A stretch of 64,000 nt of DNA from Blastocatellia bacterium. GTDB taxonomy: Bacteria; Acidobacteriota; Blastocatellia; Chloracidobacteriales; JADJPF01. The stretch covers positions 124,001-188,000 of the forward strand of contig JANWYG010000022.1 in the NCBI GenBank assembly GCA_025057015.1. Reading direction: 5' to 3'. Shown here one piece after another: positions 7,854 through 23,708 of the stretch; within the stretch, counting starts at the first letter, position 1, and every line of letters starts with the position of its first letter. A model generated the notes under the pieces. That model searched no databases and was not told where the DNA came from. It saw only the letters and a program-made list of their open reading frames with translations. The translations under genes and the position numbers were made by a program.

Positions 7854-7854
7854 A

Positions 7855-10674
7855 CTATCTAGCCAGCGACCTAAATTCGGTATAGGTTTGTGAAAAGCGA
7901 TCTCCGTTTTTGGCAGGAAACTTGAAGTTATATTTCTTGCCGAGGACTTTCATACCGACTTTGTCAGAGCTGGAGACTTGTATCTCGGAGATGCCGTTTA
8001 GCGGAACTCTGAATCCATGGTCGCTATCTGTAGTAAAAGTTACACCTTGCTGGGTTACGGTAAGCGTACCTGAACAAGAGCCGAAAGCATGATCATGGAT
8101 GACGTTAGCAGAAAATGGCTCTATACGCTTGTCCTTTGCAGCAAATTCACTTTTGATCGCTTCTATGCGCTTCTCTATGAAGGAGCGAGGATACTCACTG
8201 TTTCCACCAGCACGTAGAGCTTTTTCATAATAGCTTAAAGCCATAGAATTGTCATTCCTGTTTTCAGCTATCTGGGCTAATGCTACCAGCGAAGGCACAT
8301 GATTAGGATTGATGTCTAACACTTGGTGAAAGTAGCTTATTGCTGAGGCTAGTTGACCTCGTTTCCAATTAGCACTTGCCAGGTAGAAGAGAGTATCACT
8401 ATCTCTAATACCTGCTTTGACGGCAGTTTCTAGCTCAGTAGTTGCACCTAGGTAGTCACCGGCAGCATATTTTTGTATGCCTAGTTCGCGACGTTTGCGA
8501 GGGTCTGCGAGCGATGCAGCTTGCTGCTGCTGAGCAAGCTGCTCGCGCAGAGTCTTAAGGCGTAGAGCTGCTCGCTTGTCTTCTGGAAAAAGCCGCAGCA
8601 GCTCTTCAAACTTTTGTATCCCTATCTTAGGGTCATCTTGCACGCTAGCTTCGGCTTGTCGGATGAGCTCTTCCTTAACGCGCTGGCGCAATCGTAATCC
8701 GACAGGATTGTTTCTTTCTATGGCCAGTATCTGGGCAGAGTAATAGTAAGCCGAGGCTTGGGGTGGTTCTGTCAACCGGCCAGTTCTGAGAGCCTCTTCA
8801 GCAGCTGACTGAAGTGCGGCAAGCTCTCCACGCCTAGAGGAGAGTTCCGCCTCGAGTTTACGCAGTGCTTCTGCAGCTTTGTTATCTTCCGGGAATTTTT
8901 CTGTTATGCTTGAGTACACTTGCTGCGCAGTAGCAAGATCGCCCTTTTGGTATGCTGTTTCTGCTTGTTTAAACAGCGCGTCTTTGATGTTTTGCATCAT
9001 TTGTGGCACGCGCTGATCTAGGGGATTTATACTCAAAACGGCATTGCAGTAATAGAAAGCATTGTTATTTTCTGGAGAAATGTAGTCCCCTCTGGCAAAG
9101 GCTTCTTGGGCAAGATTAAAGAATTCCTCGGCACGTTCTTCTGGGCTACTGCCATTACTGCTACTGGCTTCTGGGATGACCTTCTCTGGTTGAAGCGATA
9201 TCAAAGGTAGGGTAACTGTCTTGCTGGCTGTAACAGTTACGTCTCGCTCCACGGGCAGGTATCCCTGCTTTGAAAGCTTCAGTTTATGTACCCCGGCAGG
9301 AACCTGCTCGAGCTCAGCAGGTGCCAGCCCTATCACTTTACCGTCTAGTTCTATCTGCGCTCCTGCCGGTATGGTGGTTACTATTATTGTTCCTACCCTA
9401 GGTCGAAAAATAGCAAGCGATAGTATAGCAGTAATTGTCAGAAAGCCAATGGCAGCAAAGACAAACATTATCCAGTATTTGATAGGAACCTTTACTTGCT
9501 TCGTTATAACGGAAGTTTGTTGAGGCACGGAAACAGACTCCTGTTTCGAAGTACGTTGTTGTATATTCTGAAGCGTTTTCGGTTTCGTAGTAGGAGGCAT
9601 TCTCTCTACAAATGCTTCCGGTGCTTCTTGTGAATGAACACGGTCCGCTACTTGTGCGACTGCTAGTTGGTTAGCAGAGGCCTTTGCTACCTGACGCGGG
9701 ACAGCAATTTCGAGTTCTATTTCTCGTAGTTGCAGCAACAATTCACTTAGTGTTGGCCGCCTTTTCGGATCGAAACTTAGTGCCTCCAGCATTAGCTTTT
9801 CAAGCGATGCGGGTACACCGAATGATGGATCTACTGCCAGTAGGCGACGTTGAGAGTCTGTTATATAAGCAACTGCACTTCTGCTGTCCTTCTCGACAAA
9901 AGGTGGTTGCCCGCTGATTAAGTAGTAACATAGTGCTCCTAGGCTGTAAACGTCGCTCTTTTCTCCTGTCTGCTCGCGACTACCGGCTAGCAGTTCTGGA
10001 GCATAGTAGACGCTTGCGTCCTTACCTAACAGTTCAGTTGCGCACTTTTTTAGAGCCGCAAAATTGTATGAAGCTACAGTGCGTCCTATACCAAAATCTA
10101 GTAACTTTATCCTCGAAGTATCTTGCCTAGGGGCAATATGCTCTTGTATCAACAAGATATTGTCTGGAGCTAGGCTACCGTGTGTAAAGCCTGCGCGGTG
10201 CGCTTTATCTATTATCTCAGCTATGCACAAAAGCATTGCTACGGCGGACTTGGGTGCCATCCGACTGCTGTTTTGTATGAAACTTTCTAGCGTAATGCCA
10301 GGAATATACTCGCTTACGATCCCTTTGCGACCATCGTTCAAAGTGATGATGTGGTACGTAGCTGGAACTTCAGCTATTGCAAGACCCTCGCAGAGCAACG
10401 CTCCTACGGTTTCAATTCGTTCATAGAGTTCAGGGTTTATCAGCTCCGGATGGAAAAGCCTGATACAGTAATCATTCCCAGAAGATTGAGCAGTAGCTCT
10501 ATATACTACGCCTAGAGCGTCAGTCCTCAGCCTCTCCCGTACGGTGAGACCACCTGTGTTTGTTCCAAGTGGAAGATAGACAGCATCAGAGCAGTAGAGT
10601 AAGGGCATACCGTCGGTTGAGCAGAATCTCAAGGCTTGTGTGTATATAGCATTACATTTGGGACAAACTGGCAT
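7855..10674 (-). CDS. Kinase-like (pseudokinase) protein with zinc ribbon, PEGA and TPR domains
   Basis: 939 residues. It starts with a small zinc-ribbon-like motif (CPKC at 4-7, FCSTDG at 17-22), then a serine/threonine-kinase fold (about 35-320). The kinase core looks inactive: the VAIK lysine position reads CIR, the glycine loop is eroded ([10 protein letters not shown]), and the catalytic loop is HGSLAPDN at about 165-172 rather than HRDLKPxN, so the catalytic Asp and Lys are missing. DFG (about 192-194) and the YAPE segment remain. After a linker comes one transmembrane helix (about 398-421), a PEGA domain ([15 protein letters not shown]), TPR repeats (about 520-830) and a C-terminal beta domain. 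It is probably a scaffold or signalling adaptor feeding the hybrid kinase one base downstream. An extended -10 box lies upstream. Confidence 0.88.
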
Positions 10675-10706
10675 CAGCTAAATCCACACTTAGGCTTTAG
10701 AGTGAA

Positions 10707-10715
10707 AGTATACCA
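10707..10715 (-). promoter_or_regulatory. Extended -10 promoter element for the kinase-like gene
   Basis: On the minus strand the sequence reads TGG-TATACT (TATACT at 10712-10707), an extended -10 element about 32 bases before the start codon at 10674. No good -35 is visible, as expected for extended -10 promoters. It would drive the kinase-like gene and the hybrid kinase behind it. Confidence 0.5.
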
Positions 10716-10809
10716 TAATGGGGAATGCCGCTGCGACTTTTAGCTAGAGGATATGCACTATGTATGCAGTGGATGTTAAAAAGGAGGATTTTGAACAACA
10801 AAAGAGATG

Positions 10810-11181
10810 TTAGATTCCAAACTCCTCCTTAAAGTGTTGTAAGAGTATTTTATATTCTTCTTTTATCTTTTCTAAAAATTGCACCGCTTCGTCTATACGG
10901 CCTTCCTTGGCCTCTTTTTCTAAAGAGGCACAAACGACTGACAATCTGTTTGCTCCTAGGGGTAAACAAGAACCTTTGAGCTTGTGTGCAAGACGGTAGA
11001 TTTGCATAGCTTCTCGAGCGGCAATTGCAGCTTCCAGTTTGTTGATATCCTCTGTTGCAGTCTGTTTGAAAATCTCGAATAGCTCGGTAAGAAAATCTTG
11101 CCCTTCTTCTCCTTCAAGCTGACATAGCTCGCGTAGCACTTCTCGATCTACTATTTTGGGTGAATCAGACGCGTTTGACAT
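10810..11181 (-). CDS. Stand-alone histidine phosphotransfer (Hpt) protein
   Basis: A 123-residue, helical cytoplasmic protein with the Hpt signature RLAHKLKGSCLPLGANRL, in which the His of HKLKGS (about residue 67) is the phospho-acceptor. It would pass phosphoryl groups between receiver domains of hybrid kinases and response regulators. The hybrid kinase at 53422 lacks its own Hpt domain, so it is a possible client, whereas the one at 3489 has one fused. The gene follows pgpA by 12 bp, at the end of the tubulin/Hsp70 block, and 135 bp precede the next gene. Confidence 0.88.
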   Translation of the reverse strand: MSNASDSPKIVDREVLRELCQLEGEEGQDFLTELFEIFKQTATEDINKLEAAIAAREAMQIYRLAHKLKGSCLPLGANRLSVVCASLEKEAKEGRIDEAVQFLEKIKEEYKILLQHFKEEFGI

Positions 11182-11193
11182 ACTTAGAAGGTA

Positions 11194-11607
11194 CTATACG
11201 ATCTTAAAATATACAAGCACTTGCAAACAGCAAAGCGTGTATACTCCTGCAACAACGTCGTCCATCACTACATCAAATCCGCTGCGAGCTGTCCTGTCAA
11301 AGTAGCTCGCCGGCCAAGGCTTTACTATGTCTAGTAATCTGAACAAAGTAAAGCCTACAACCACTGTCTTCAGATTAGGCTGCGATGCGAACATAGCTAT
11401 TAGAAAACCTACTATTTCGTCTATGACTATCTGCTGAGCATCAATAACGCCGAAATGCCTGCCTGCTAGGTCGGCTGCTATGCAACCAAGAATGGTCAAC
11501 GCAATACATAGAGCAAAATAAATGACAAGAGGGGTTTGCAGTAGCACTAAAAGCAAGTAAACCAACACCCCGACTAGCGTCCCGGCCGTGCCTGGAGCTA
11601 CAGGCAA
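11194..11607 (-). CDS. pgpA: Phosphatidylglycerophosphatase A, start uncertain
   Basis: Membrane phosphatase converting phosphatidylglycerol phosphate to phosphatidylglycerol, the step after PgsA. The sequence has the family motifs PVAPGTAGTLVGVLVY at the N-terminus and IVIDEIVGFLIAM in the middle, plus several hydrophobic helices. The only conventional start in frame is TTG at 11607, which cuts into the conserved segment. The same frame remains open upstream and encodes ALALATGLGSGYLPVAPGT, exactly what PgpA proteins have before this motif. No ATG, GTG or TTG occurs in that extension, up to and into the overlapping upstream gene. A GAGGG sequence precedes an ATC codon at 11695-11697, so a rare start such as ATC is possible. 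Coordinates given are the minimal version. Confidence 0.85.
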   Translation of the reverse strand: MPVAPGTAGTLVGVLVYLLLVLLQTPLVIYFALCIALTILGCIAADLAGRHFGVIDAQQIVIDEIVGFLIAMFASQPNLKTVVVGFTLFRLLDIVKPWPASYFDRTARSGFDVVMDDVVAGVYTLCCLQVLVYFKIV

Positions 11608-11687: not shown

Positions 11688-12371
11688 TTAGGCTGATATC
11701 ACTACCCTCGCTTTTATCAATATCCGACCGTCTTTTTCATATCCTCTGCTTCTTACCGCAAGTATCACCCCTCTTTGCTCAGCTAGCTTTTGTTCGACCG
11801 GCTCATGCTTCGTAGGATCATATGTAGTGCCTATTTCGGGATAGATGTGCTTGAACCCTAGGGTATTGACCAGCTCTAGAAATGTTTCTTCGAGCTGTGG
11901 TTTTTTTTCTACATGAGCGCTTAGCGGTAGCAATACGCTATCAAGCCAGTTTATCCTCTCGAATGGCGTTCGAGCAAAGTCTATAAATCCCGTCAAAGGC
12001 TCATCACTGAAGATATACTCTGGCAGATTCGACTTTAACATTTCGGCTACCTGTCTGTCAGACGTCGATAACTTCTCGATAAGCACTCTTACCTGCTTCA
12101 ATAGAGGAACCTTAGAATGTAGCAGCCGAACCCAATCGCTTTTTAGAAAACCAGGAAGTTCTCTGCGCAAAGTTTCAAGTTCTGCCCAGATCAAATTCAA
12201 TTCTTCCTCTTGAGACGCAGTCAAGGCTTTAGCGTCTTTTCTACTTTCAAGAGCTTCTAGTCGCCGCCTTAGCTCGGCATGTTCGGCACGTATGCCTTGC
12301 AATTCCCTAAGGACAACCAATACAGCAGCGAAAATCACCGTGACTATAAACGCAAGCAGTAGATAATACAT
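11688..12371 (-). CDS. Membrane-anchored GrpE-like protein
   Basis: 227 residues: an N-terminal transmembrane helix (about 3-21), a charged coiled coil (about 24-75), a helical middle, and a C-terminal domain (about 171-227). The last domain reads IYPEIGTTYDPTKHEPVEQK, then GVILAVRSRGYEKDGRILIKARVVIS. This matches the pattern of the GrpE beta-wing (G.x.FDPx.HEAV...V.....GY...GRVLRPA.V.VS). GrpE is the nucleotide exchange factor of DnaK, so this is probably a dedicated exchange factor, tethered to the inner membrane, for the Hsp70-like protein encoded nine bases upstream. True GrpE is soluble and dimerises through its long helices; the membrane anchor is the unusual part. Assignment rests on pattern recognition and gene neighbourhood. 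Confidence 0.72.
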   Translation of the reverse strand: MYYLLLAFIVTVIFAAVLVVLRELQGIRAEHAELRRRLEALESRKDAKALTASQEEELNLIWAELETLRRELPGFLKSDWVRLLHSKVPLLKQVRVLIEKLSTSDRQVAEMLKSNLPEYIFSDEPLTGFIDFARTPFERINWLDSVLLPLSAHVEKKPQLEETFLELVNTLGFKHIYPEIGTTYDPTKHEPVEQKLAEQRGVILAVRSRGYEKDGRILIKARVVISA

Positions 12372-12380
12372 TGCGGCTGA

Positions 12381-15300
12381 TTAACCTACTAGGGGGACTT
12401 GGTACTTATCTTTGTTCTTACCGTCGGTAAGACGTACTTCTATGCCTTCACCTTCGGGCAATAGCTCAAACTCTACTTCCAACTCGACACCATCTGCAAA
12501 GTTTCCACATCTTATAGGGTAGCAGTTGACCTGAGGATTTTGTATCAGCTGGGGATTCTGTTCATAGCCAAAGTAGTAGTAAAGTTCGATGACTGAGTCG
12601 CGTATCTTTAGCTTGCGCTTGTGTAATGCTTCTTGAGTACCGGCAACCGTCCCTCGATGAAAAACAACGTCTAGTTGATGAAACTTTCCTGCTAGTCCTA
12701 CATCGCAGGGCAATGTGTGCTTTATCTCATCTATAGAGAAAGGTAAAGAGTCGGGAGAGCTGACATAGAGTAAAGCACCTTTCATAACACCCGTCTTGAC
12801 GTCTTCATCTACCAGTATTTGACCTGTAAACTCTTGAAGCATCTCCTTTACCATAGGTAGTTTAGAAGAGTTGCCTCCAAGCAGTATGAAATCGAGTTTC
12901 CCTTCTGATAGCAAGCCGCGCAGACATAGCCGTTGCAGCATGGCACGCAGTGCATCGGTGGCTTTCTCTATATGCTTACGAAGTAGAGATTCTATGGCGT
13001 CTTTTTCTAAGAATGTGCTAAACACATGCCAAGACTTGCCGTCATGAAGGCTACGGCGAAATTCTTCGTCAAAGAAACTGGTCGAGCTATAAAAGTTCCT
13101 CTTTAGTTCTTCAGCACTGCGGGCTAGTTGAGAATAATTCACCCTAATTTCGTCTTCGACGACGGAGTTTAGCTCTTCGATAGACTTAGGAAAGGCAAAA
13201 GCGCTACGACTTTCTGCCGGTACTAGTTTCTCGTAAAGGTACCGCGCTAGCTCGAAAGTAAGTAGTTCTCCACCTAAATTTATCCCAGCCACGTCTAGCA
13301 ATCGGACTTTGAACTGTCCTTTGGATTGTTCAAGTCGAAGGATTGCTATGTCGGTAGTGCCTCCGCCGAAATCAAAGACGCCGAAACTCTCCAAACCTAG
13401 TATCTGCTGGTTTTTATAGAAATAGTTTATAGCTAGCGCCAGGGGTTCGCTTGTAGCAAGCACTACGTTTTCTACCCCTGCCTTCTTGAAAGCTTCACTT
13501 AGCCTCTCACGTTGCTTTTTGCCAAACAGCACGGGATAAGTCAGTACTATCTTCCGTGGCCTTAGACCGTGTTTGCTTTCTATAGTTTCAAAAAGCCTAG
13601 AAGCATAGATCTCGACTAGTTCATCTGCTGTCTTATGATGCGGTCTTTCGTGACGAACATCGAGGAAGGTCTGGGTTTTTGGTTTGTCGCTCATAAGTAG
13701 CGGCTTGAATGCCCAGGCGGTCGAGCGAAGATCTCGTAGACTGGTAAAAAGCTTACTATACGCCACTACGCCGTGCTCTACTATCCCTTCTTCTATATCT
13801 ACGAACTGCAGACAAGTCGGACTTTCTTGTAGGTCTGCGTCTTCTAGAGACAATATTTTGAACCGTCCCTTCTCGAAGAGAGTAGCACAGCTGTTACTTG
13901 TGCCGAAGTCAATAGCTATCCAACTGTCAGACTGGTCAGGTGCCTTGAATTCGAACTTGATATCTATCGGTTGATTGCACTCGATGTCTAGCTGCGGGTC
14001 ATAGTAACGGAGTTGTAGGTTGACGTTCTCGAAACCGGGTTTGCGACCAGATGTATCAGCCAGAAGCTGCAGCTCGACTCTTTCCCCTGCACCAAGATGA
14101 GCTATACTTGCCGGATTTATGGTGAGCCAATCTGGTATACCTTGAATTTCTATCTTCTCGGCTTTGCCTTGGCCAAGAATATCCTGTCGCTTGTTTTGTA
14201 AGGATAATTTTACAGGTACCTTCTGCCTGCTAAGTATTATTGCCTCGTTGCCGAGCAGATGCGTTGGACTCACGCTTAAAATTGCCGTCGGTACATGGGT
14301 TATTTGTAAGATGAAGTTTCTAACTCCTAGTTCTTCAAACGACACTGCTAGTACGCCGACAGCAGGTAAGCCTTTAAGCCCAAGATTAAACTCTACTGGA
14401 TGAGCAGCATCAAGCACGTATAGCTTACTTGACTCCCACCGTTTTTCGCCTTCGACTATGAAAGACAAACAGTTAATGGTAAGAGCCATTTCGCTGTCTG
14501 TTTCTAACTTGCAGCACAGGGTCTGTTGCTCAAGCGGCAAGAGTACTTCATAACCATTTTTCAGAGGAATGGGTTTTGGATGTAATAATTTCAGCAGAAT
14601 TTCTGGAGGCCGCTTCAATAAGAGAGGTATTTCCTTTACCTTACCGTGGTAGAGGAATCTGAAAGTACCGCTTCTTCGTCCATAATAAGTAGTAGGGTCA
14701 ACAGTTATCGATATAGCTATCGCTTCATTCGTATCAAGGTAAACCTCACGATAGGGTGAGACTTTCGCCTTGACTTGCAATACCTCGAACTCAGCAAGGT
14801 TTATAGGAATGAGACCAGTATTTGTTATTCGGAAAGATTTAGTGTAGGGCGTATTGCTAGCCTCGTCTATGTATATGACTACTTCGTTAGGTACTTCGAT
14901 GTTGACTATGGTTTTCCCACATCCAGAGCAATAGCTGTCGGTATCAGTAAGTATTTCCCATTCACAGTTAGGGCAGTTGATAGTTGGTGGAACTAGTTTT
15001 GGTTTAGTGCTGGCAAGTTCATCGTCTAGCTTAGGTTGGGCTGTAAGTATGCCTCCGCTGAAAACGCCCTGGTTAGTAGTGCCTACGGACTCGACTTCTG
15101 GTTTGCTTTGAATAGTTCCTATTTGTGGGCCTTCTGGCTTAGCTATTTTCGCAGGAGTTGGAGGCTCGACTGCTTCTTGTCGTGAAGGATCGTTTGGCAG
15201 AGGTTTTTCAGAGGGGCGTTCTGTAACTGGGCTTTTGACCGATGGTTCCAAACGGTTAGCTTTGTCGTCTGTTTTAGCAGGTGAAGTAACAGTTTGAGGA

Positions 15301-15575
15301 GTAGATCTTCTTGTTTCCTTGTTGCTACTACTTTGTTGTGTAGCAGCAGTTGGAGGAAGTAAGTGTGCTAACTCTTTAGGCAGTGGTAAGTGTCTGTTGT
15401 ACTGAGCACGTCGTAGATAGTCTATGGCAAGCTCTGCTTCTTGCTTGTCTCTGGGATTTGTGGCTGAGTACTTTTTTGAGTTGTACTTGCGCAAAGTAGC
15501 AAAGTGAGCGTTTTTTATCTGCGACTCATCTGCATTTTCTTCGTTAATGCCTATGAAACGCAGGTAGTCATTCAA
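12381..15575 (-). CDS. Chimeric Hsp70-like protein with J-like N-terminus, zinc ribbon and Ig-like region
   Basis: A 1064-residue protein. Residues 1-65 resemble a DnaJ J-domain (helix, ESQIKNAHFATLRKY, helix), but the HPD tripeptide is absent (NSK at 32-34). A low-complexity Pro/Ser/Thr linker follows (about 75-195), then a four-cysteine zinc ribbon (C201, C204, C216, C219), then a beta-rich region of Ig-like or ASH-like repeats (about 225-545). An Hsp70 ATPase domain begins near 550 with IAIDFGTSNSCATLF, has FDFGGGTTDIAIL near 730 and ILLGGNSSKLPMVKEML near 895, and is followed by a short substrate-binding-like beta domain without the usual helical lid. It is predicted to be a cytoplasmic ATP-driven chaperone or actin-fold switch. 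It lies between the ankyrin gene (4-bp overlap) and the GrpE-like gene. Confidence 0.88.
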   Translation of the reverse strand: MNDYLRFIGINEENADESQIKNAHFATLRKYNSKKYSATNPRDKQEAELAIDYLRRAQYNRHLPLPKELAHLLPPTAATQQSSSNKETRRSTPQTVTSPAKTDDKANRLEPSVKSPVTERPSEKPLPNDPSRQEAVEPPTPAKIAKPEGPQIGTIQSKPEVESVGTTNQGVFSGGILTAQPKLDDELASTKPKLVPPTINCPNCEWEILTDTDSYCSGCGKTIVNIEVPNEVVIYIDEASNTPYTKSFRITNTGLIPINLAEFEVLQVKAKVSPYREVYLDTNEAIAISITVDPTTYYGRRSGTFRFLYHGKVKEIPLLLKRPPEILLKLLHPKPIPLKNGYEVLLPLEQQTLCCKLETDSEMALTINCLSFIVEGEKRWESSKLYVLDAAHPVEFNLGLKGLPAVGVLAVSFEELGVRNFILQITHVPTAILSVSPTHLLGNEAIILSRQKVPVKLSLQNKRQDILGQGKAEKIEIQGIPDWLTINPASIAHLGAGERVELQLLADTSGRKPGFENVNLQLRYYDPQLDIECNQPIDIKFEFKAPDQSDSWIAIDFGTSNSCATLFEKGRFKILSLEDADLQESPTCLQFVDIEEGIVEHGVVAYSKLFTSLRDLRSTAWAFKPLLMSDKPKTQTFLDVRHERPHHKTADELVEIYASRLFETIESKHGLRPRKIVLTYPVLFGKKQRERLSEAFKKAGVENVVLATSEPLALAINYFYKNQQILGLESFGVFDFGGGTTDIAILRLEQSKGQFKVRLLDVAGINLGGELLTFELARYLYEKLVPAESRSAFAFPKSIEELNSVVEDEIRVNYSQLARSAEELKRNFYSSTSFFDEEFRRSLHDGKSWHVFSTFLEKDAIESLLRKHIEKATDALRAMLQRLCLRGLLSEGKLDFILLGGNSSKLPMVKEMLQEFTGQILVDEDVKTGVMKGALLYVSSPDSLPFSIDEIKHTLPCDVGLAGKFHQLDVVFHRGTVAGTQEALHKRKLKIRDSVIELYYYFGYEQNPQLIQNPQVNCYPIRCGNFADGVELEVEFELLPEGEGIEVRLTDGKNKDKYQVPLVG

Positions 15576-16057
15576 GGCTCCTCTCCCCTTTCATTTAGTA
15601 CCTGTACGACGGACTCATGCTTGTTTTCTGTCGCATAAATTAGCGCTGTCTTCCCTTCGCTGCTCTTGATATTAGGGTCAGCACCTTTTGAAAGTAACAA
15701 CCTTACCGTCTCTACGTTGCCTTTCTGGGCAGCATACATAAGAGCTGTCTTTCCTTCATTGCTCTTAAGATCTATAGCTGCTTTTGCCTCAAGCAGCGTC
15801 TTTACTATGTCGTTGCTGCCGTTTTCTGCAGCATACATGAGGGCTGTCTTACCAAGTTTGTCTTTGATGTCTATCTCTACACCTTCTGCTAATAGTTGTT
15901 TTACTGTTGCTAAGTCGTTTTTCGAAGATGCAGTAATCAAAGCTTTGTCGCTGTCAAGGTATGTATAGACTATCATTCCTTCTAGTACTATGCCGACTAT
16001 GTAGAGTAAGGCAATTATTAGTTTGGTGTGACCTGGTGGCTGTTTTATCACTTTCAC
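15572..16057 (-). CDS. Membrane-anchored ankyrin-repeat protein
   Basis: 161 residues with an N-terminal transmembrane helix (about 13-33, LIIALLYIVGIVLEGMIVYTY) and about four ankyrin repeats (36-158). The repeats show the usual core GKTALMYAAENGSNDIVKTL and GADPNIKSSEGKTALIYA. Ankyrin repeats bind proteins, so this is likely an adaptor fixing a partner to the membrane. From the positive-inside pattern the repeats could lie on either side; the N-terminal lysines favour a cytoplasmic N-terminus with the repeats outside, but this is uncertain. The stop overlaps the start of the Hsp70-like gene by 4 bp, and the tubulin-like gene ends 11 bp upstream, placing it inside the same operon. Confidence 0.88.
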   Translation of the reverse strand: MKVIKQPPGHTKLIIALLYIVGIVLEGMIVYTYLDSDKALITASSKNDLATVKQLLAEGVEIDIKDKLGKTALMYAAENGSNDIVKTLLEAKAAIDLKSNEGKTALMYAAQKGNVETVRLLLSKGADPNIKSSEGKTALIYATENKHESVVQVLNERGEEP

Positions 16058-16068
16058 TGCCTCCGTAT

Positions 16069-19000
16069 TCAGGAACGTAGCTGCTCAGCATGGTCTTCTA
16101 GCAGTTTGATTAAGTCATCTGTAAGTTTATACTCTTGCTGCATCTTCTTGAGTTCCTCACGAGCCCAGTCTTCCACTGCTCTTGGTGTCGTTACCAGCGC
16201 TGTGTAATTGTCCAAGTAGCTGGTGATGCTGTTTTCTAAGTTTCTGGCTTCTTGAAGAGATATCCCAACTTGTTCGGCTTCTTTGTCTAGATCAGCTCTG
16301 AACAGCTCTATATCGTTAGAGCCATTACCGTAGAGACCGAGGAAGAAAGTAGCATACGTATAGTACTTTTCAGCAGTATTGCTGGATTTCGGTAATTCTT
16401 CTTCCTCTATCTTCTTTGCGAGAACTTCATTTATGCCTAACTGTTTTCTATAGTTGTCGAGTGCTCGTCGCTGGGGTGGGCCTAAGTTACCTTGTCCAGC
16501 TTTTATCATCAATTTCACTCGCTCTCGATACTTAGCTACGACATCCTTCGAGACTTCACCTGGAATTTCTGCTGGGGAAGTTGGTTTCTCGGTCTGTTTC
16601 ACTTCTTCTCCTGCGAGCAGTTTGTTCAACGTCTCTTTGTTAGTTCTTATCTTTTGCCAGTCTAGCATCTTACAGCGTAGGTTTGATGAGTGATCCTCGG
16701 CTATGTCGGCTAACTCGCTACAGTAGAGGTCGGCATGTTTGGCTAGCAGATTTCGCACCCTGAGTACTTCGTCACTTTTAAAAGCACTGGAAAGGCGTCT
16801 TTGTAGATATTCTATTCTCTCGTTATAGCATGCTGCGTCGCTGGGATTACTGTCTAGTGACTTTTCCATAACTATCCAGGCGAGAGCACTGCCTCTGTGT
16901 GAGAACTGCTTGTGCAGCTCAGCCTCTGCTTCTTCTATCATTTTCTTTAGCTCGCTACGTAGCTCGACTGAGCTTGTGATCTTGGCTAAGCATTGCTCGT
17001 AAGTACCTAATGACTCTTCGCTAAATCGCGTTTTAAGTGGATCTATTGGGCGGCTGAAACTGTAGACTTTCTTTCTATTACTAGTTATATCTTGATTGTC
17101 TGCTACGTTTATTTTGCCGTACGTAAGAGCTAACACGAAGTGCCTTCTGGCTTCTTTAGAAGGATCTTTACCTCGGATAAACTCACCGAGCAGCGCTTTA
17201 TTCTCCTGCCAAGCTTTCTCATCAAAGGCGGTAAGATGTAGGCTGCCTTTTGGTAAGTCCCGTAGGATATCGGTCCAAGTTGTAGTAAATAGTACACGGT
17301 TATTTTGAAGGGTTGATACTGCCTTTTCGAGTAGGTTTTTATCGGCAAAAGCTGGGATTTCTCTGCTTATTTCGTACATCTCTTCGAGTAAACACTCACG
17401 TTCAGCAGAAACCAGCTTCTCACGGTCTCCGTTTGGTAGCTCTACTTCACGTTCCGGAAAAGGTTGTCTTTCTCCGTTGACTAGCTCATTTAATAGTGCA
17501 TACCATAAGAGCAGATGTCCTTTGAACTTTTCGTTCTCTTCAAGAAGCTTCTCTTCTTTCAGTTTCTTCTTGACTTCTGAGACCTGTTCTAACAGTTTTT
17601 CTCGCAAAGGATGAATGCTTGTTTCTTCATATAGGTTATTTATAGCTGCTTCGAACATTCCCAGGGTCTTTTGCTGAGGATTCAATTTATGTGTATCACG
17701 CTCGTCATAGTAGACCATCGAGTAAATTCTGTCCCGCGGATCGTACTTGTTCTCATTTTCGGTTTGCTTGATTACGCCTGCAGCTAATCCTAAAACGAAT
17801 GCCTTTATCGAGCGAAGGTAGCGTTTGCGGCTATCTTCATCGCGATAAAGTATGTCATTCATCATAAAACGGTTCTTGGTGGTAAAAAGATCTATCTGTG
17901 ACTTGTCTTTTTCCTTCTCTCGGAAAGCTCTTCTCATTTCTTGCAGGCTAGATAATGACGCCAAACAAATGCCTGCTATTTCGCCATAAAATACGATTTC
18001 ATGCGTGTTGCCTATCGGCTTAAAGTCGATGCTCATCGACCCGCTTTGGAAGCTTTCTACCATCTTGTGCAGGTGTCTATAGTTAGGATGGGATGTATCC
18101 ACACCTATAAGCATTTTGTGTGCACCTGAAGGTACATATAGCTCTCCAGGTACAGCATCATTGAAGTGTACCCATCCTTTTGCTAGGTTGAAGCATTCTT
18201 CTACCTGCTTTCTGACTATGCTTTCGTTATAGTTTTGTGGAAACAGCAAGTCGAGGACATGAATGTTGATGCGCTCGGAGACTTTCTTTTCTAAGAACTC
18301 GATCAATTTAGAAATTACTCTTTTTTCCGTAGAGTCGTTGCCTATGTTCTCAGCCAGAGCACTTACGGTGGGCTTTTCTATGACTCCTATCTGGTGAAGA
18401 TGGGACAATAAATCCTCAGAATATCTTGAAATCCGCAGTGGAGCGTTGATTGCTGACTCTATTATGGCATCTTCGGCAGCTACTACATTTCTATAGTACT
18501 TGTCCAGGTCAGATTCATATAGTCTTAGGTCTATTTTCGAGCTGTCATCCTTCTGGCGGTAGTATTCGGAGAGGAGCAAGAATTCGCTCCTTTTTTCCGT
18601 CATCAAAGTGTTTACGCTAAACAACTCCCTACGTAGCTCAGTCTCTACAATCTTTGCTAGTTCATCTAATAACTTGATGTATGTCTCATAGACATACTTG
18701 TATCCCGAGGCACGTAGGTATTTAAATGTGCTTTCGTTCCACCTATCCTTCTGTACTTGTACGGCATCTTTCCATCCGCCAAAAAGTTTCTCCCAAGAAG
18801 ACTTGCCTTCTAGCTCTTGTAGTTCCCGTAGTGCGGACTGATATTCACTAGCGGCCGAGGTACGCTGCTTTTCTTCTGCATCCATTGCCTGTATAGCTTT
18901 CTCGCGATAGTGCTGTCCTCGCAAGATTGATGGTAGGTTATTTACTATCTGCAGGACATAATCGAATCCGTAACTCGGATGTGATAAACGTTCTTTGAGC

Positions 19001-20487
19001 AGTTTGAGCATTTCGTTGTGTGCGTTCTTGATAGTCTCTTCATAGCAGACCTGCCTAATATGTCGCACGAAATCACCCCATCGGGAGGGATCTTTCGGGT
19101 CATCCTCGCGTAGATGGTCTCTTACAAAAGACTCGGTAAACTTCTGTAGTTCACGTGTACTACCGGGGGAAAGTTGATCAAAATTGAAACTTTGCAGCTT
19201 TGCGTCTATTTTGCTGCGGCAGATCTGTTCGATTGTAAGCTTGTCCTTGATTTCGAGCGAGCGGCGGAGATCTTCATAAGAAAGCCGACACTCCTTTAAA
19301 AAAGCTAGTGCATAATCGATGGCCTTTGCGCGGCCTTCACCACCTAGCCAATAGCCTAGTATTTCAGCAGCTAAGCGGTAAGTGCAGGATTTTACTATTT
19401 GTTCGCGAGGATAGTAAATCCGGCTCATACCGAACGAGGAATAGCGACGAGGAAGGGTTTCTGTAAGGATCTCCCGATTACCATCTGGCGTAGGGTGCTT
19501 GTATACAGCTACTTGAAGGGTGTATTGTGCGAGGTTGGAGCGGAAGCTGCGCTTGTCATCACTGAATTGTCCGCTCTTGAAATCCTGTATCAGAGCGCTA
19601 GCTATCATGTTGTATAGGGTTACATCGTCCGTGGTGTTGCCGACTATGCAACGTCCGTCTACCAAGTAGGTGTGCTGATAAAGAGGAGGTGAGATTTGAC
19701 GCGGCTCCTGCTCAAAGTAAATAGTGAAATTGTTGTCGTATTGGTAGTGGTTCAGTTCTATTAGTGCTGCATAGCCGTTAGCTACGCAACGCGGATCTCT
19801 CATCTTAAACACTTCCGGCAGTACTAGTATCAAATGCGTTTCTATGCCGTTGATGGTATGTAGCAATGCGCCCATGTCTAGAAAAACGCCCGATCCAGTA
19901 CCACCGGCAGATGAGCAGATCACGAACACGTTTATCGTGTTGGTGTAGATTTGCAGGTTTCTGGCACCTGGATGTTCCAACCTGTTGAGATCGATGCTAC
20001 GTAATTGTCTTACTAGCTCTTCCAGCTTCGGCCTGATCTTGTTTTGGCCGTAATGATGAAAGAAACCTAGCCGCGAAGCTACTCGTACCTGGCCAGCACC
20101 TTGGCCTAAGTCTCCAAGTCTGCGTAGCTGGGGATCGGGTTTGAACCATGGTTTCAGGCGAGGATAGCTGTTGACTTCGAGAAACTGAGCAACGTTTACT
20201 TTAAGCGGTATCCATTCACTGTCGGTGAACTGCTTTGCTTTAAAGAGTGGATCTCGGGTTATGTCCTTGCTTGTGTCTTTGCTCGAGCGTTCGTCTGTAT
20301 CTAGGTGAAGAAACTTTATTATAGGGAAGTTATAAAAGCTGCCGTATTCATCTATTACCCAATTACGTACACGCTGTAGCACGTTGCCGCCCGTTCCGCC
20401 GATGCCTATCAATAGCGTAGGCCGAACTTTACTGGCATTGGCATCGGTTTTTGCTGCAATGGTAGCCTGTATATTTCTGTAGCTCAT
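16069..20487 (-). CDS. Large tubulin/FtsZ-like GTPase
   Basis: A 1472-residue protein whose first 210 residues carry a tubulin/FtsZ-type GTP-binding domain: TLLIGIGGTGGNVLQRVR at about 25-42 (the first nucleotide loop), FLHLDTDERS near 59, and VICSSAGGTGSGVFLDMG at about 189-206, matching the tubulin signature GGGTGTG. This corresponds to the Pfam family Tubulin-like, in which the GTPase is followed by a very long C-terminal region. The rest (about 400-1470) is mostly charged and helical, with coiled-coil stretches. No membrane segment is seen. It probably forms GTP-dependent filaments in the cytoplasm. It sits between a small membrane protein (4-bp overlap) and the ankyrin gene. Such proteins have been reported, from my memory, beside VWA genes and proposed to remodel membranes. 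Confidence 0.88.
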   Translation of the reverse strand: MSYRNIQATIAAKTDANASKVRPTLLIGIGGTGGNVLQRVRNWVIDEYGSFYNFPIIKFLHLDTDERSSKDTSKDITRDPLFKAKQFTDSEWIPLKVNVAQFLEVNSYPRLKPWFKPDPQLRRLGDLGQGAGQVRVASRLGFFHHYGQNKIRPKLEELVRQLRSIDLNRLEHPGARNLQIYTNTINVFVICSSAGGTGSGVFLDMGALLHTINGIETHLILVLPEVFKMRDPRCVANGYAALIELNHYQYDNNFTIYFEQEPRQISPPLYQHTYLVDGRCIVGNTTDDVTLYNMIASALIQDFKSGQFSDDKRSFRSNLAQYTLQVAVYKHPTPDGNREILTETLPRRYSSFGMSRIYYPREQIVKSCTYRLAAEILGYWLGGEGRAKAIDYALAFLKECRLSYEDLRRSLEIKDKLTIEQICRSKIDAKLQSFNFDQLSPGSTRELQKFTESFVRDHLREDDPKDPSRWGDFVRHIRQVCYEETIKNAHNEMLKLLKERLSHPSYGFDYVLQIVNNLPSILRGQHYREKAIQAMDAEEKQRTSAASEYQSALRELQELEGKSSWEKLFGGWKDAVQVQKDRWNESTFKYLRASGYKYVYETYIKLLDELAKIVETELRRELFSVNTLMTEKRSEFLLLSEYYRQKDDSSKIDLRLYESDLDKYYRNVVAAEDAIIESAINAPLRISRYSEDLLSHLHQIGVIEKPTVSALAENIGNDSTEKRVISKLIEFLEKKVSERINIHVLDLLFPQNYNESIVRKQVEECFNLAKGWVHFNDAVPGELYVPSGAHKMLIGVDTSHPNYRHLHKMVESFQSGSMSIDFKPIGNTHEIVFYGEIAGICLASLSSLQEMRRAFREKEKDKSQIDLFTTKNRFMMNDILYRDEDSRKRYLRSIKAFVLGLAAGVIKQTENENKYDPRDRIYSMVYYDERDTHKLNPQQKTLGMFEAAINNLYEETSIHPLREKLLEQVSEVKKKLKEEKLLEENEKFKGHLLLWYALLNELVNGERQPFPEREVELPNGDREKLVSAERECLLEEMYEISREIPAFADKNLLEKAVSTLQNNRVLFTTTWTDILRDLPKGSLHLTAFDEKAWQENKALLGEFIRGKDPSKEARRHFVLALTYGKINVADNQDITSNRKKVYSFSRPIDPLKTRFSEESLGTYEQCLAKITSSVELRSELKKMIEEAEAELHKQFSHRGSALAWIVMEKSLDSNPSDAACYNERIEYLQRRLSSAFKSDEVLRVRNLLAKHADLYCSELADIAEDHSSNLRCKMLDWQKIRTNKETLNKLLAGEEVKQTEKPTSPAEIPGEVSKDVVAKYRERVKLMIKAGQGNLGPPQRRALDNYRKQLGINEVLAKKIEEEELPKSSNTAEKYYTYATFFLGLYGNGSNDIELFRADLDKEAEQVGISLQEARNLENSITSYLDNYTALVTTPRAVEDWAREELKKMQQEYKLTDDLIKLLEDHAEQLRS

Positions 20488-20867
20488 TCTTCTTGCCTCC
20501 TGCCGCCTAGAAGTACCTTAAAGACAAGATGTGCTAACCAGACAAGGGCTATGAAGAAGAAAAGCAGCTTCCAGCCTGTCGGGTATAAGTATCTAAAAAA
20601 CAATAGAGTAAATAATATAAGCGCATAAAGTAGGAATAGCGATATACCTATTTGCTGTGCTTCACTGAGAGGATAGTAGTTACGAACTAAGAATGGAACT
20701 AAACCACCTCTGATAAGCAGCAGGAACATTATCAGGCAGCTGACTATAAATATGGCAGTGTACTTTATTACATCCATTCTCGTAGCATTTGGAGTAAGGC
20801 CTATTGCATTTGCCGTGTCCGCTATAACCAGTAAAGCAGGTAATACTGCTAGTAATGCTCGTCTCAT
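20484..20867 (-). CDS. Small polytopic membrane protein
   Basis: 127 residues with a likely signal peptide (1-21, ending IADTANA) and three hydrophobic helices at about 34-55, 70-92 and 96-118, finishing in a basic tail GGRRQEE. No family is recognised. It overlaps both neighbours by 4 bp (the VWA gene upstream, the tubulin-like gene downstream), so it is almost certainly part of their complex. A plausible role is a membrane subunit linking the VWA protein to the cytoplasmic tubulin-like protein; this is inference from position only. Confidence 0.75.
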   Translation of the reverse strand: MRRALLAVLPALLVIADTANAIGLTPNATRMDVIKYTAIFIVSCLIMFLLLIRGGLVPFLVRNYYPLSEAQQIGISLFLLYALILFTLLFFRYLYPTGWKLLFFFIALVWLAHLVFKVLLGGRRQEE

Positions 20868-22474
20868 GGTTCCTCTCCTTCTGTCCTACCCTTTGGACGC
20901 TCTGTGCGGATGTATAATCTGTAAGCTACGTCATCGTCAGACGCTTCTTGTCGAGCTAGCGCTATATCGCTGTGTAAATCAGGTACGCGCTTGAATGCGC
21001 TTTTCTTCGGCTCAAACTTCCAGTGTGTACCCCAATCACGGCATAGTCTTCCCAGGATCTCTCCAGAATCAGACTTTATAGTAGCAGCCTGATTGCGTCT
21101 GAGAGAGTACAATTTATAAAACTCAAAGCTGTCGTCGAAGCTAACATAGTAGTATCTAGGTTTTACCAGCCAAACTACCATGCTTATCATAGTTGTGGAC
21201 AAAATCCCCGCAAGTAGCAAGACTAATAGTAGCCTTGTTCCAGTGTTTCTAACTTTTGGTTTTAGTTCTAGGTGCAACTCTTCCATGTCAACCGCTTGTG
21301 GACGGAAGATTTCGGGAATATCTGCGGTGCCGAAAATGCCTTTCATTTTATCTGGGAGTTCCAATTGTAGCTGGACGTCTTTAACACGTGCTGTAAGCGT
21401 ACCTTGCATGGAGAATTCTTCGTCAAAGATATCTTTAAAGAGCGTGGAATAGTTATTTCTAGAAGGATTTATGCTGACTTGCGGAGTGGTAAAAGTCACG
21501 ACGAAGGTTTCTTCAGAGCGAGGTTTCAAGCTCTTTATCTTATACGGTTGCTGTGGGGAGAAACTAAAATCGCTACCACTTATTTTGCTAATGCTATCTC
21601 GTTCAGGCTGTAAGTCTGAAGCTACTAGCTCTAACTTGGCGGAAGTGATTACGTGATAATTAAAGCGCGAAGAAATTACTATCTCTACCGTGCCGCTAAG
21701 AGGTGAATTTTCGTCTACTGCGTCGAGTCTAAGTTCATCACGAAGCTTTAGACGAAGCGTATTGCGTTCTAGAGGTTTCATCTGAAAAGGTTTGCCTTGC
21801 ATGAACTTCTCCAACTGCTTCGTGGAAATATATTCTTCTTCCCAGCGCGTTAGTTCTTCAACTTCAAGGGGCTTTTCTGTTGCTGCCACTATTGCGTACA
21901 GCATCAATGAGGAAAGATTGTTTATACCTTCGCGTTTAATCGGGTAGGCATAGACCATCTGTATTTGCTTGTTGTTTGCTAGCAGCGAGTAAAACTTGCG
22001 TGTATCTTCAGCTTCCTGACTTGCACCGCTATCGGCTATGTTGTCGGTAAGTAACCAGATAAGGGCTTGTCTGCCGCCAAGTTCCGCTAATAGCTGCTCT
22101 AAAGCATCTGGCATACGCGTGCTCTTTATGTCTTCCGGAGAAGTAGCTCCTATGACGTCTAACTTTCCGTATGGAGGAAGCAGCAGGTCTATTCGTAACT
22201 GCGAGGCTTTGATGGGAGATTGTACTACGTTTGTTACGCGATTAAAGGTAATTATTGAGATAGTGTCATTTGGTTTACAGGTGAGTTCTATTAGTTCTTT
22301 GAGAAAGGCTTGGAATACGGGTCGACGGTAATAGTAGCTCTGCGGGCCAGACTTAGGCTGGGGATAGCCATCGTACATGCTGGCTGAATTATCCAGCAGA
22401 TAGTATATGTTTTCGCTGCGGGCTTGGTGGACTGGCAGTAGTAGCAGTAATATAGCGATGAGTCTAGAAGTCAA
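20864..22474 (-). CDS. Exported, membrane-anchored VWA-domain protein
   Basis: 536 residues: signal peptide (1-20), then a von Willebrand factor A domain starting ENIYYLLDNSASMYDGYP with a complete metal-site motif D-x-S-x-S (D28, S30, S32) and a later hydrophobic strand LIWLLTDN. Beta-rich regions follow (about 240-400), then one transmembrane helix (about 411-434) and a C-terminal cytoplasmic domain of about 100 residues. VWA domains bind protein partners through a divalent metal. The topology puts the VWA domain in the periplasm and the tail in the cytoplasm, ideal for passing a signal across the membrane. It overlaps the upstream propeller-like gene by 11 bp and the downstream small membrane gene by 4 bp. 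Confidence 0.88.
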   Translation of the reverse strand: MTSRLIAILLLLLPVHQARSENIYYLLDNSASMYDGYPQPKSGPQSYYYRRPVFQAFLKELIELTCKPNDTISIITFNRVTNVVQSPIKASQLRIDLLLPPYGKLDVIGATSPEDIKSTRMPDALEQLLAELGGRQALIWLLTDNIADSGASQEAEDTRKFYSLLANNKQIQMVYAYPIKREGINNLSSLMLYAIVAATEKPLEVEELTRWEEEYISTKQLEKFMQGKPFQMKPLERNTLRLKLRDELRLDAVDENSPLSGTVEIVISSRFNYHVITSAKLELVASDLQPERDSISKISGSDFSFSPQQPYKIKSLKPRSEETFVVTFTTPQVSINPSRNNYSTLFKDIFDEEFSMQGTLTARVKDVQLQLELPDKMKGIFGTADIPEIFRPQAVDMEELHLELKPKVRNTGTRLLLVLLLAGILSTTMISMVVWLVKPRYYYVSFDDSFEFYKLYSLRRNQAATIKSDSGEILGRLCRDWGTHWKFEPKKSAFKRVPDLHSDIALARQEASDDDVAYRLYIRTERPKGRTEGEEP

Positions 22475-23708
22475 ATCTACATACCTCCCCGTTTTCAGAA
22501 ACAGTATAAAGTGAGTTGTTTACAGCGAAAGCATCCACTACATTTGAATCGTCTGAAGAGGCGTCTCCCAAGAGCCGCCGTTCGAGGGGACTTGACGGAT
22601 CGATTAACAACAGTTTGCCATCGCTGCATAGTACTAGCAACAAGCCTTGGCTGTCTTCAAAAAGGTATGAGGTACTGATGTCAGAAGCCCTTTCTATTCC
22701 TCCGGGATGCTCATAAAAGAGCAGTTCTTCGTGCTTGGCAATTACTATTTTGTTTCTTACGCACTTTAGCCTACTTATGCCTCCACCAACCTGTATTATT
22801 TTCTTCAGTTGCGGCTTGTCTGGGAGAGTAATTTCCAGGAGATATCCTTCGGAAGATACGCAGAACACTTTCCTGTCTAGCGCTTCTGGAAAAACTTCAT
22901 AGCGCAAGTTTTCGGCCAAGACTTTAATCCCCTGCTTTGTTAGCTTAACTATCTTGGCCTCTTTTGTCATCGCATCTTTCGCCCAGTAAATTGCTGAGTT
23001 TGGGATGATTTGGCGAAACAGTAACAAGTGTTTGCCATCGTCGAGATAGAGTGGTTCAACTGCTGTTTCTCCTAGTCGTAGTAGCACAGCTTGCTGTTGG
23101 TTGGAATATGCTGGAACGAACAAATTATCTTCTTCAATGTATCCTTCACAAGCATACGTTACGCTCAGGTTTTCTGGAACAGGAGTTTGCTCGATGTTTT
23201 TGAGCCACCTGTGTGGATGTATGCTAAAGCTTAGTAGCTGATGTTTTCCTATGATTGCAAGCCGAGTTATTACTTGCATGGGCTGAGTAAGCGGTTCAAC
23301 CGAGCTAATTTGCTGTTGCAATTCGGCCGGGATTTCTATGGTTTCAAGCTTCTTGCTGAGTGTATGAACCAGCTTGAGTTCCCCTTCGTAAGTTAGTATC
23401 CACAGGTGTGTTCCTGTAAAGCAGGTTCTGAAATTACGGATACGTCTTCCTAACTGAACCACGTACTTGTTAGGTAGCGAATCTGAGTGTAAATTGATAC
23501 GACTTAGCAGGCTGTTCTTCCTGATAAACCAGCCGAATGGTTTACCGCAAAAACGGCAGTAAAAAGCATCGCCGCGGTTGCTAGTTTGCCGGGAATTGTC
23601 ACACTGCGAGCAAGTCCGTAGTGCTGTACCGCAGGTATTACAGAAGTTAGGAGTAGGATCATATTCGTTGCAGCGAGGATTGGGGCACCTTGTTTTCGTA
23701 CTTTGCAT
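22464..23708 (-). CDS. Double zinc-ribbon protein with propeller-like repeats
   Basis: 414 residues, no signal peptide or membrane helix. The first 55 residues hold two zinc ribbons: ligands C8, C13, C23, C26 and C33, C36, C51, C54. The remaining part is made of short beta-strand repeats, for example QGLLLVLCSDGKLLLIDP and NNSLYTVSENGEVCRFDF, typical of a beta-propeller of the WD40/PQQ kind; it is probably a cytoplasmic interaction platform. The ATG at 23708 has GAGG seven bases upstream (GAGGCAACAAATG). This is the first gene of the tubulin/Hsp70 run; a 56-bp divergent promoter region separates it from the plus-strand operon at 23765. Zinc ribbons recur in the Hsp70-like and kinase-like proteins downstream. 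Confidence 0.78.
   Translation of the reverse strand: MQSTKTRCPNPRCNEYDPTPNFCNTCGTALRTCSQCDNSRQTSNRGDAFYCRFCGKPFGWFIRKNSLLSRINLHSDSLPNKYVVQLGRRIRNFRTCFTGTHLWILTYEGELKLVHTLSKKLETIEIPAELQQQISSVEPLTQPMQVITRLAIIGKHQLLSFSIHPHRWLKNIEQTPVPENLSVTYACEGYIEEDNLFVPAYSNQQQAVLLRLGETAVEPLYLDDGKHLLLFRQIIPNSAIYWAKDAMTKEAKIVKLTKQGIKVLAENLRYEVFPEALDRKVFCVSSEGYLLEITLPDKPQLKKIIQVGGGISRLKCVRNKIVIAKHEELLFYEHPGGIERASDISTSYLFEDSQGLLLVLCSDGKLLLIDPSSPLERRLLGDASSDDSNVVDAFAVNNSLYTVSENGEVCRFDF

What the first reader, a model, noticed from the sequence alone, without database searches (positions are those of the whole stretch)
11688..23708. Operon linking a tubulin-like GTPase, an exported VWA protein and an Hsp70/GrpE-type chaperone pair
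Seven minus-strand genes are packed with overlaps of 4-11 bp or gaps of 9-11 bp: zinc-ribbon/propeller-like, exported VWA with TM tail, small membrane protein, 1472-aa tubulin-like GTPase, anchored ankyrin, Hsp70 chimera, anchored GrpE-like. From memory, large tubulin-like proteins have been reported beside VWA genes and proposed to remodel membranes (Makarova and Koonin 2010), with a GTPase and OmpA-type partners. I do not recall one that carries a dedicated Hsp70, a GrpE-like factor and an ankyrin anchor. The set fits a periplasmic sensor coupled through membrane anchors to a chaperone-controlled cytoplasmic filament. The function is inferred; the layout is visible.
Basis: partly seen in the sequence, partly recalled or inferred. 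Interest (0 to 1): 0.88.

Follow-up and report, generated by a model that had tools for sequence, protein, structure and literature searches.

The report
Tubulin-like GTPase operon with chaperones
An acidobacterium carries one operon that joins a giant tubulin-like protein, an exported sensor-type protein and its own Hsp70 chaperone with a membrane-tethered helper; relatives of the whole set recur in several bacterial phyla, so it looks like a real, unstudied membrane machine rather than a chance cluster.

Summary
Seven minus-strand genes (11688-23708) are packed with overlaps of 4-11 bp or gaps of 9-11 bp. Pfam confirms Tubulin_2 (E 6e-62), Hsp70, GrpE and ankyrin; the VWA and zinc-ribbon/propeller assignments are weak alone but supported by homologues.

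The core is a known kind: FtsZl1/Tubulin_2 plus VWA (Makarova & Koonin 2010). What I did not find described is a dedicated Hsp70 plus membrane-anchored GrpE in the same operon without a DO-GTPase. Kaur et al. 2020 report tubulin and Hsp70/GrpE as separate, non-overlapping themes of GTPase-centred systems.

The combination is not a one-off. Linked Hsp70, an adjacent membrane-anchored GrpE-type protein, VWA and tubulin recur in Acidobacteriota, Desulfonema magnum, a deltaproteobacterial MAG, Niveispirillum and (GrpE only suggestive) Gemmatimonadetes, in two gene orders.

Limits: most Tubulin_2 loci lack chaperones, as does the genome's own paralogous operon; in sister genera the chaperone pair is encoded away from the tubulin gene or not found. 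The ankyrin gene is local. Membrane-controlled, chaperone-driven remodelling of a tubulin-like polymer is inference; a conflict (anti-phage) role is the main rival. New variant of a known kind.

The parts
22464..23708 (-). Gene A, 414 aa: N-terminal double zinc ribbon (CxxC at 23, 33, 51) and propeller-like body, no TM
   Evidence: (DZR E 0.014, weak); homologues with PQQ_2 propeller hits in L025, L052, L061 found by one family HMM
20864..22474 (-). Gene B, 536 aa: signal peptide, VWA domain with MIDAS motif DNSAS, TM at ~412-431, cytoplasmic tail of ~100 aa
   Evidence: (VWA_2 E 1.4e-3); homologues 54-57% identical in sister genera and across phyla
20484..20867 (-). Gene C, 127 aa: small membrane protein (3-4 hydrophobic segments)
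   Evidence: homologues near the tubulin gene in L038, L049, L056, L058, L060 and in sister genera
16069..20487 (-). Gene D, 1472 aa: Tubulin_2/FtsZl1-type GTPase; T1-like loop GxGGTG at 28-33, signature loop AGGTGSG at 194-200; long, mostly helical C-terminal part
   Evidence: (invariant G28, G30, G31, G33, G195, G196, T197, G198, G200, D204 in 26 sequences)
15572..16057 (-). Gene E, 161 aa: one N-terminal TM and ankyrin repeats; local addition, not conserved in related loci
   Evidence: no counterpart in related loci
12381..15575 (-). Gene F, 1064 aa: zinc ribbon (CxxC 201, 216), Ig-like middle region, Hsp70 nucleotide-binding domain (553-919, phosphate loops IAIDFGTS and DFGGGTTD intact), beta substrate-binding domain (~948-1064), no helical lid
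11688..12371 (-). Gene G, 227 aa: N-terminal TM, coiled coil, C-terminal GrpE beta domain on the cytoplasmic side

Best explanation
The operon encodes a membrane-associated machine of the FtsZl1-VWA kind that has its own Hsp70 system. SHOWN by sequence: a tubulin-fold GTPase, an exported VWA protein with a TM and cytoplasmic tail, a small membrane protein, an Hsp70 with intact ATP loops plus a lidless substrate-binding beta domain, and a membrane-anchored GrpE-type exchange factor; the set recurs across phyla. INFERRED: the anchored GrpE protein holds the dedicated Hsp70 at the inner membrane and drives its nucleotide exchange there; the Hsp70 binds the tubulin-like protein or the cytoplasmic tails of its membrane partners and drives assembly or disassembly of a tubulin-like scaffold (compare Hsc70 uncoating clathrin, or the actin-fold FtsA partnering FtsZ). 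The VWA domain, and in relatives the periplasmic part of the GrpE protein, would report envelope state across the membrane.
For: Tight operon. Tubulin fold. Hsp70 domains: NBD, ATP loops, SBD-beta (hhalign to the genome's own DnaK 403-513, E 5e-6, probability 86%, against 0-0.4% for 8 column-shuffled controls). All seven Hsp70 genes found in 41 dereplicated tubulin loci (699 kb) lie on the tubulin gene's strand with 0-4 genes between; Desulfonema magnum adds one just beyond the flank. In each, an anchored protein with a GrpE-type C-terminus accompanies it: a GrpE-beta HMM built without loci L061, L086, L106 ranked exactly the anchored protein of the Hsp70 cluster in those three loci as the top three non-training hits of the gene set (E 3e-6, 2e-3, 0.39; the last not significant). 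Two gene orders (chaperones before: L038, L048, L052, L053, L056+L123; after: window, L061, L086, L106). Tubulin-linked Hsp70s fall on one side of a branch (78/69 support, 80% of bootstraps; 0 of 500 label shuffles as low). In 297 phylum genomes only G000 and G286 score as the anchored GrpE type (111 and 183 bits; all others at most 51, ordinary GrpE), and these two have the strongest tubulin-like matches (the profile was trained on both).
Against: No evidence of polymerisation or of a D-F contact. Makarova & Koonin could not align the T6-H7 region of FtsZl1, so filament formation by the usual route is doubtful. Most Tubulin_2 loci, including this genome's paralogue at C16 (L025, with PP2C instead), lack chaperones. 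In sister genera F-G is not beside D, and in G306 (87% complete) F and G were not found. Bootstrap support for a single origin of the linked Hsp70s is modest and several branches are long.
Confidence: 0.42

Rival explanations
1. A biological conflict (anti-phage or anti-competitor) system: the tubulin-like protein and Hsp70/GrpE form an NTP-dependent assembly that responds to envelope damage or infection, as Kaur et al. 2020 propose for DO-GTPase systems with tubulin or HSP70/GrpE.
For: Shared component types (tubulin, vWA, HSP70 with and without peptide-binding part, GrpE, zinc ribbons, FN/Ig-like domains). Patchy distribution: 11 of 297 phylum genomes have any D-like match.
Against: No DO-GTPase2 in eight genomes, the window's and seven relatives with related loci. 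PADLOC gives only ankyrin and a weak Hsp70-region match. All four genomes of the window's family keep D and its paralogue, unlike a fast-moving defence island; no effector domain recognised in the operon; base composition ordinary.
Confidence: 0.25
2. Assembly factors: the Hsp70/GrpE pair only folds or assembles the large operon proteins (1472-aa tubulin-like protein, VWA protein at the membrane) and takes no part in regulation.
For: Dedicated chaperones beside large complexes are common (general knowledge); related operons do without them.
Against: Membrane anchoring of the exchange factor, with a periplasmic part in most relatives, and the zinc-ribbon/Ig fusion of Hsp70 suggest a localised role rather than general folding. 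The genome already has several ordinary DnaK genes and a GrpE.
Confidence: 0.22
3. Coincidental neighbours: F-G is an independent module that happens to sit downstream of a known A-B-C-D operon.
For: F-G orthologues lie on other contigs than D in G305 and G304.
Against: Same-strand linkage of Hsp70, GrpE-type protein, VWA and tubulin in seven further dereplicated loci plus Desulfonema, in two gene orders, and the Hsp70s share an N-terminal extension, often with zinc ribbon and Ig-like region.
Confidence: 0.08

Closest known systems
FtsZl1 (Pfam Tubulin_2, PF13809) - vWA operons, Makarova & Koonin 2010 (PMC2875224)
   Same: Tubulin_2 GTPase of >1000 aa with helical C-terminal part, operon with an exported or membrane vWA protein and small membrane proteins
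   Different: That paper's main text mentions no Hsp70, DnaK, GrpE or ankyrin; here no P-loop GTPase or OmpA domain is among the Pfam hits of the operon
GAP1-N2 / DO-GTPase systems, Kaur et al. 2020 (PMC7159879)
   Same: Component types: tubulin, vWA, HSP70, HSP70 without peptide-binding part, GrpE, zinc ribbons, FN-like repeats; predicted to act near the membrane
   Different: DO-GTPase2 absent from the genome and seven relatives, no GAP1 domain among the operon's Pfam hits; tubulin and HSP70/GrpE, described there as non-overlapping themes, occur together here
Canonical DnaK-GrpE
   Same: Hsp70 NBD with intact phosphate loops and SBD-beta; GrpE beta domain
   Different: Hsp70 has a ~550-aa zinc-ribbon/Ig-like N-terminal part and no helical lid; GrpE is anchored to the membrane and encoded in the operon
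FtsA-FtsZ
   Same: An actin-fold ATPase and a tubulin-fold GTPase tied to the membrane (what it may work like)
   Different: No sequence membership: F matches HSP70 far better than FtsA, D is Tubulin_2, not FtsZ

Membership tests
FtsZl1 / Tubulin_2 (D) | Match to PF13809 over the curated cut-off | tested here: met
   210 bits against a cut-off of 27, E 6e-62
FtsZl1 / Tubulin_2 (D) | Tubulin signature loop GGGTG[ST]G | tested here: met
   AGGTGSG at 194-200 (first G is A, as in relatives); G195, G196, T197, G198, G200 invariant in 26 sequences
FtsZl1 / Tubulin_2 (D) | Tubulin/FtsZ fold | tested here: met
   AlphaFold model, Foldseek best PDB hits all FtsZ/tubulin, probability 1.00, E from 1.5e-4, TM-scores low (about 0.3-0.5 by target)
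FtsZl1 / Tubulin_2 (D) | Operon with a vWA-domain protein | tested here: met
   Gene B with MIDAS motif DNSAS; Pfam VWA_2 only E 1.4e-3
FtsZl1 / Tubulin_2 (D) | GTP hydrolysis and filament formation | not testable with these tools
   needs purified protein
GAP1-N2 DO-GTPase system | DO-GTPase | tested here: not met
   PF19993 found in none of 8 genomes while the control Corynebacterium glutamicum rang
GAP1-N2 DO-GTPase system | GAP1 protein | tested here: not met
   no GAP1 model among Pfam hits of the operon's proteins; elsewhere in the genome not searched
GAP1-N2 DO-GTPase system | FNIII-repeat component | tested here: inconclusive
   Ig-like/ASH-type middle region of the linked Hsp70s, weak hits; FN-like protein in G286/L038, not in the window
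Hsp70 (F) | Nucleotide-binding domain with intact phosphate loops | tested here: met
   HSP70 E 8e-20; IAIDFGTS and DFGGGTTD
Hsp70 (F) | Substrate-binding beta domain | tested here: met
   hhalign E 5e-6 against the own DnaK, shuffled controls 0.17-0.96
Hsp70 (F) | Helical lid | tested here: not met
   protein ends after the beta domain
GrpE (G) | C-terminal beta domain that contacts Hsp70 | tested here: met
   PF01025 31.6 bits, cut-off 25.8; a profile of the anchored type finds ordinary GrpE-sized proteins throughout the phylum, the own GrpE included
GrpE (G) | Nucleotide exchange activity and dimerisation helices | not testable with these tools
   N-terminal half is TM plus coiled coil; activity needs an assay

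The most novel reading that the evidence does not exclude
A dedicated, membrane-anchored Hsp70-GrpE motor that assembles or takes apart a bacterial tubulin-like polymer in response to a periplasmic VWA sensor: a chaperone-driven cytoskeletal system for which I know no described counterpart in bacteria.
Probability: 0.3. Interest if true: 0.85.

Novelty: new variant of a known kind. Interest (0 to 1): 0.62.

Why it matters
The FtsZl1 branch of the tubulin superfamily was described in 2010 and I found no experimental characterisation of it in the searched library. A recurrent partnership with a dedicated Hsp70 and an anchored exchange factor makes a concrete, testable prediction about how at least one subgroup is controlled, links two universal machines (tubulin-fold GTPases and Hsp70) in one operon, and points to a named strain with a complete genome (Desulfonema magnum 4be13) in which the archetypal cluster is present.

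Tried and rejected
Single-protein scan of genome contigs with D found nothing; the alignment query gave 350 relatives. A J-domain-like look of F residues 1-60 was tested with Pfam on its own: no hit, so not claimed. AlphaFold of F 540-1064 was too poor to use (mean pLDDT 53, six sequences); the beta-domain claim rests on profile alignment instead. A first GrpE-beta profile contained a spurious ORF and was rebuilt. DO-GTPase membership rejected. Ankyrin as a core part rejected. Kinase 7855-10674, Hpt 10810-11181 and the PgpA-like ORF 11194-11607 considered as extra operon members: gaps of 80 and 135 bp and no counterpart noticed in related loci; left out. The tree of D is a short search with long branches; not used to argue gain or loss. 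PDB sequence search with D gave nothing. Promoter and terminator scan was near chance level, not used.
Full report
WHAT IS THERE. Seven minus-strand ORFs fill 11688-23708: A 414 aa, B 536, C 127, D 1472, E 161, F 1064, G 227. Junctions are -11, -4, -4, +11, -4 and +9 bp, and good Shine-Dalgarno-like sequences precede B to F. The next gene downstream lies 80 bp away; upstream, a divergent gene starts at 23765. This is an operon by any ordinary standard; transcription itself was not tested.

DOMAINS. Pfam: G carries a GrpE domain (E 1.6e-7, over the cut-off) at its C-terminus; F an HSP70 nucleotide-binding domain at 553-919 (E 8e-20); E ankyrin repeats (E 3e-42); D Tubulin_2 (E 6e-62). B's VWA (E 1.4e-3) and A's zinc ribbon (E 0.014) are below the cut-offs, but B has the MIDAS motif DNSAS after a signal peptide, and homologues of A in L025, L052 and L061 hit PQQ-type propellers. 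D residues 1-600, modelled with 26 sequences (mean pLDDT 74.6, pTM 0.52), match only FtsZ and tubulins at the top of the PDB list (probability 1.00, E from 1.5e-4; TM-scores are low, about 0.3-0.5 by target). F's phosphate loops are intact and its last ~115 residues align to the beta substrate-binding domain of the genome's own DnaK (E 5e-6; column-shuffled controls 0.17-0.96); the helical lid is missing.

ORGANISM. The genome (3.33 Mb, 97% complete) belongs to Acidobacteriota: G286, given as same phylum, has the contig length (129,002) of QHVT01000016.1, titled Acidobacteria bacterium gp7. Likewise same-family genomes G304 and G306 match contigs titled Blastocatellia, so class Blastocatellia is likely.

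IS IT CONSERVED? A scan with an alignment of four tubulin-like proteins gave 350 relatives; 80 loci were kept. Gene calls and family HMMs show an archetype in Acidobacteria gp7 (L038): Hsp70 with zinc ribbon and Ig/ASH-like region - degenerate Hsp70-like protein - anchored GrpE protein - zinc-ribbon propeller - exported VWA with TM - small TM protein - Tubulin_2 - trypsin-like - FN-like protein. Close versions occur in a Deltaproteobacteria MAG (L048), SZUA-115 (L053), Chloracidobacterium UBA7656 (L052) and Desulfonema magnum, a named strain with a complete genome (L056 plus L123); versions cut by the ends of the stretch in L058 and L060. A second order, VWA - TM - tubulin - Hsp70 - anchored protein, as in the window, occurs in a Bryobacteraceae MAG (L061), Niveispirillum (L086) and a Gemmatimonadetes MAG (L106, where one further gene lies between Hsp70 and the anchored protein). 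Pfam confirms HSP70 in L038, L048, L052, L053, L061, L086 and L106 and GrpE in L026 (the G286 copy of L038), L048, L052 and L053, some GrpE scores being below the curated cut-off. For L061, L086 and L106 Pfam does not see GrpE; a dedicated GrpE-beta HMM built without them ranks exactly these three anchored proteins first among non-training proteins (E 3e-6, 2e-3, 0.39). The last is not significant alone.

STRENGTH OF LINKAGE. In 41 dereplicated tubulin loci (699 kb) all seven Hsp70 hits are on the tubulin's strand with 0-4 genes between. Tubulin-linked Hsp70s group apart from DnaKs and a DUF3731-type pair with modest support (78/69; 80% of bootstraps) and share a long N-terminal extension (alignment). 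In 297 genomes of the phylum, a profile of the anchored GrpE scores 183 and 111 bits in G286 and G000 and at most 51 elsewhere, the latter being ordinary GrpE; the profile was trained on both, so the informative part is the absence elsewhere.

LIMITS. Most Tubulin_2 loci, e.g. Janthinobacterium, cyanobacteria and Ignavibacteria, have no Hsp70 in the stretch held. The genome's own second operon (C16, L025) has A', B', C', D' and PP2C but no chaperones. All three same-family genomes have orthologues of D (53-79% identical over the matched stretches) and of D'. In G305 the set is split into C-D, A-B and F-G clusters; in G304 A-B-C-D and F-G are on different contigs, the D contig ending inside D; in G306 F and G were not found. 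No ankyrin gene was seen with any of these loci. So the chaperone pair is a recurrent but dispensable partner, and the window's single operon is one arrangement of it.

MECHANISM. The sequence shows parts and topology; it does not show assembly, sensing or contacts. The best-supported reading is a membrane-tied Hsp70 cycle (anchored GrpE, dedicated lidless Hsp70) acting on a tubulin-like scaffold or its membrane partners. Rivals are a conflict system, a mere folding factor, and coincidence; the last is poorly supported.

COMPARISON. Makarova & Koonin 2010 (PMC2875224) described FtsZl1-vWA operons and proposed membrane remodelling; no Hsp70 or GrpE is mentioned in the main text. Kaur et al. 2020 (PMC7159879) described DO-GTPase systems in which tubulin and HSP70/GrpE appear as non-overlapping themes. 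No DO-GTPase2 is present in eight genomes checked here. Literature searches found no description of the combined, GTPase-less set, within a library limited to open-licence papers. Hence: new variant of a known kind.

Noticed in passing
G000 contig C16, L025:6286-14123: A paralogous operon in the same genome: zinc-ribbon propeller, VWA, TM protein, Tubulin_2, then a PP2C phosphatase; no chaperones. The paralogous tubulin gene is present in all three same-family genomes.
   Followed up: partly
L038:3647-5098, L123:9738-11387: A degenerate Hsp70-like (ASKHA) protein sits between Hsp70 and the anchored GrpE in some relatives; absent from the window.
   Followed up: partly
L038:13964-15810 and counterparts in L048, L049, L056: A trypsin-like and an FN/carboxypeptidase-regulatory-like anchored protein follow the tubulin gene in the archetypal clusters, not in the window.
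   Followed up: partly
window 3489-11181: A 1454-aa hybrid sensor kinase with propeller, a Ser/Thr kinase with PEGA and TPR domains and an Hpt protein lie just downstream on the same strand; proteins similar to parts of the sensor kinase follow the tubulin gene in G305 and G306 (L135, L136).
   Followed up: no
L037:6007-11068 (G000 contig C4): Two Hsp70-like proteins in tandem (one with DUF3731) plus a DUF2760 protein: another dedicated Hsp70 module in the same genome.
   Followed up: no
tubulin genes of L038, L048, L049, L053, L056, L058, L060: These related tubulin-like proteins carry about eight CxxC motifs (C-terminal double zinc ribbon by Pfam in the G286 copy); the window's D has none and instead a different ~130-aa C-terminal part.
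   Followed up: no
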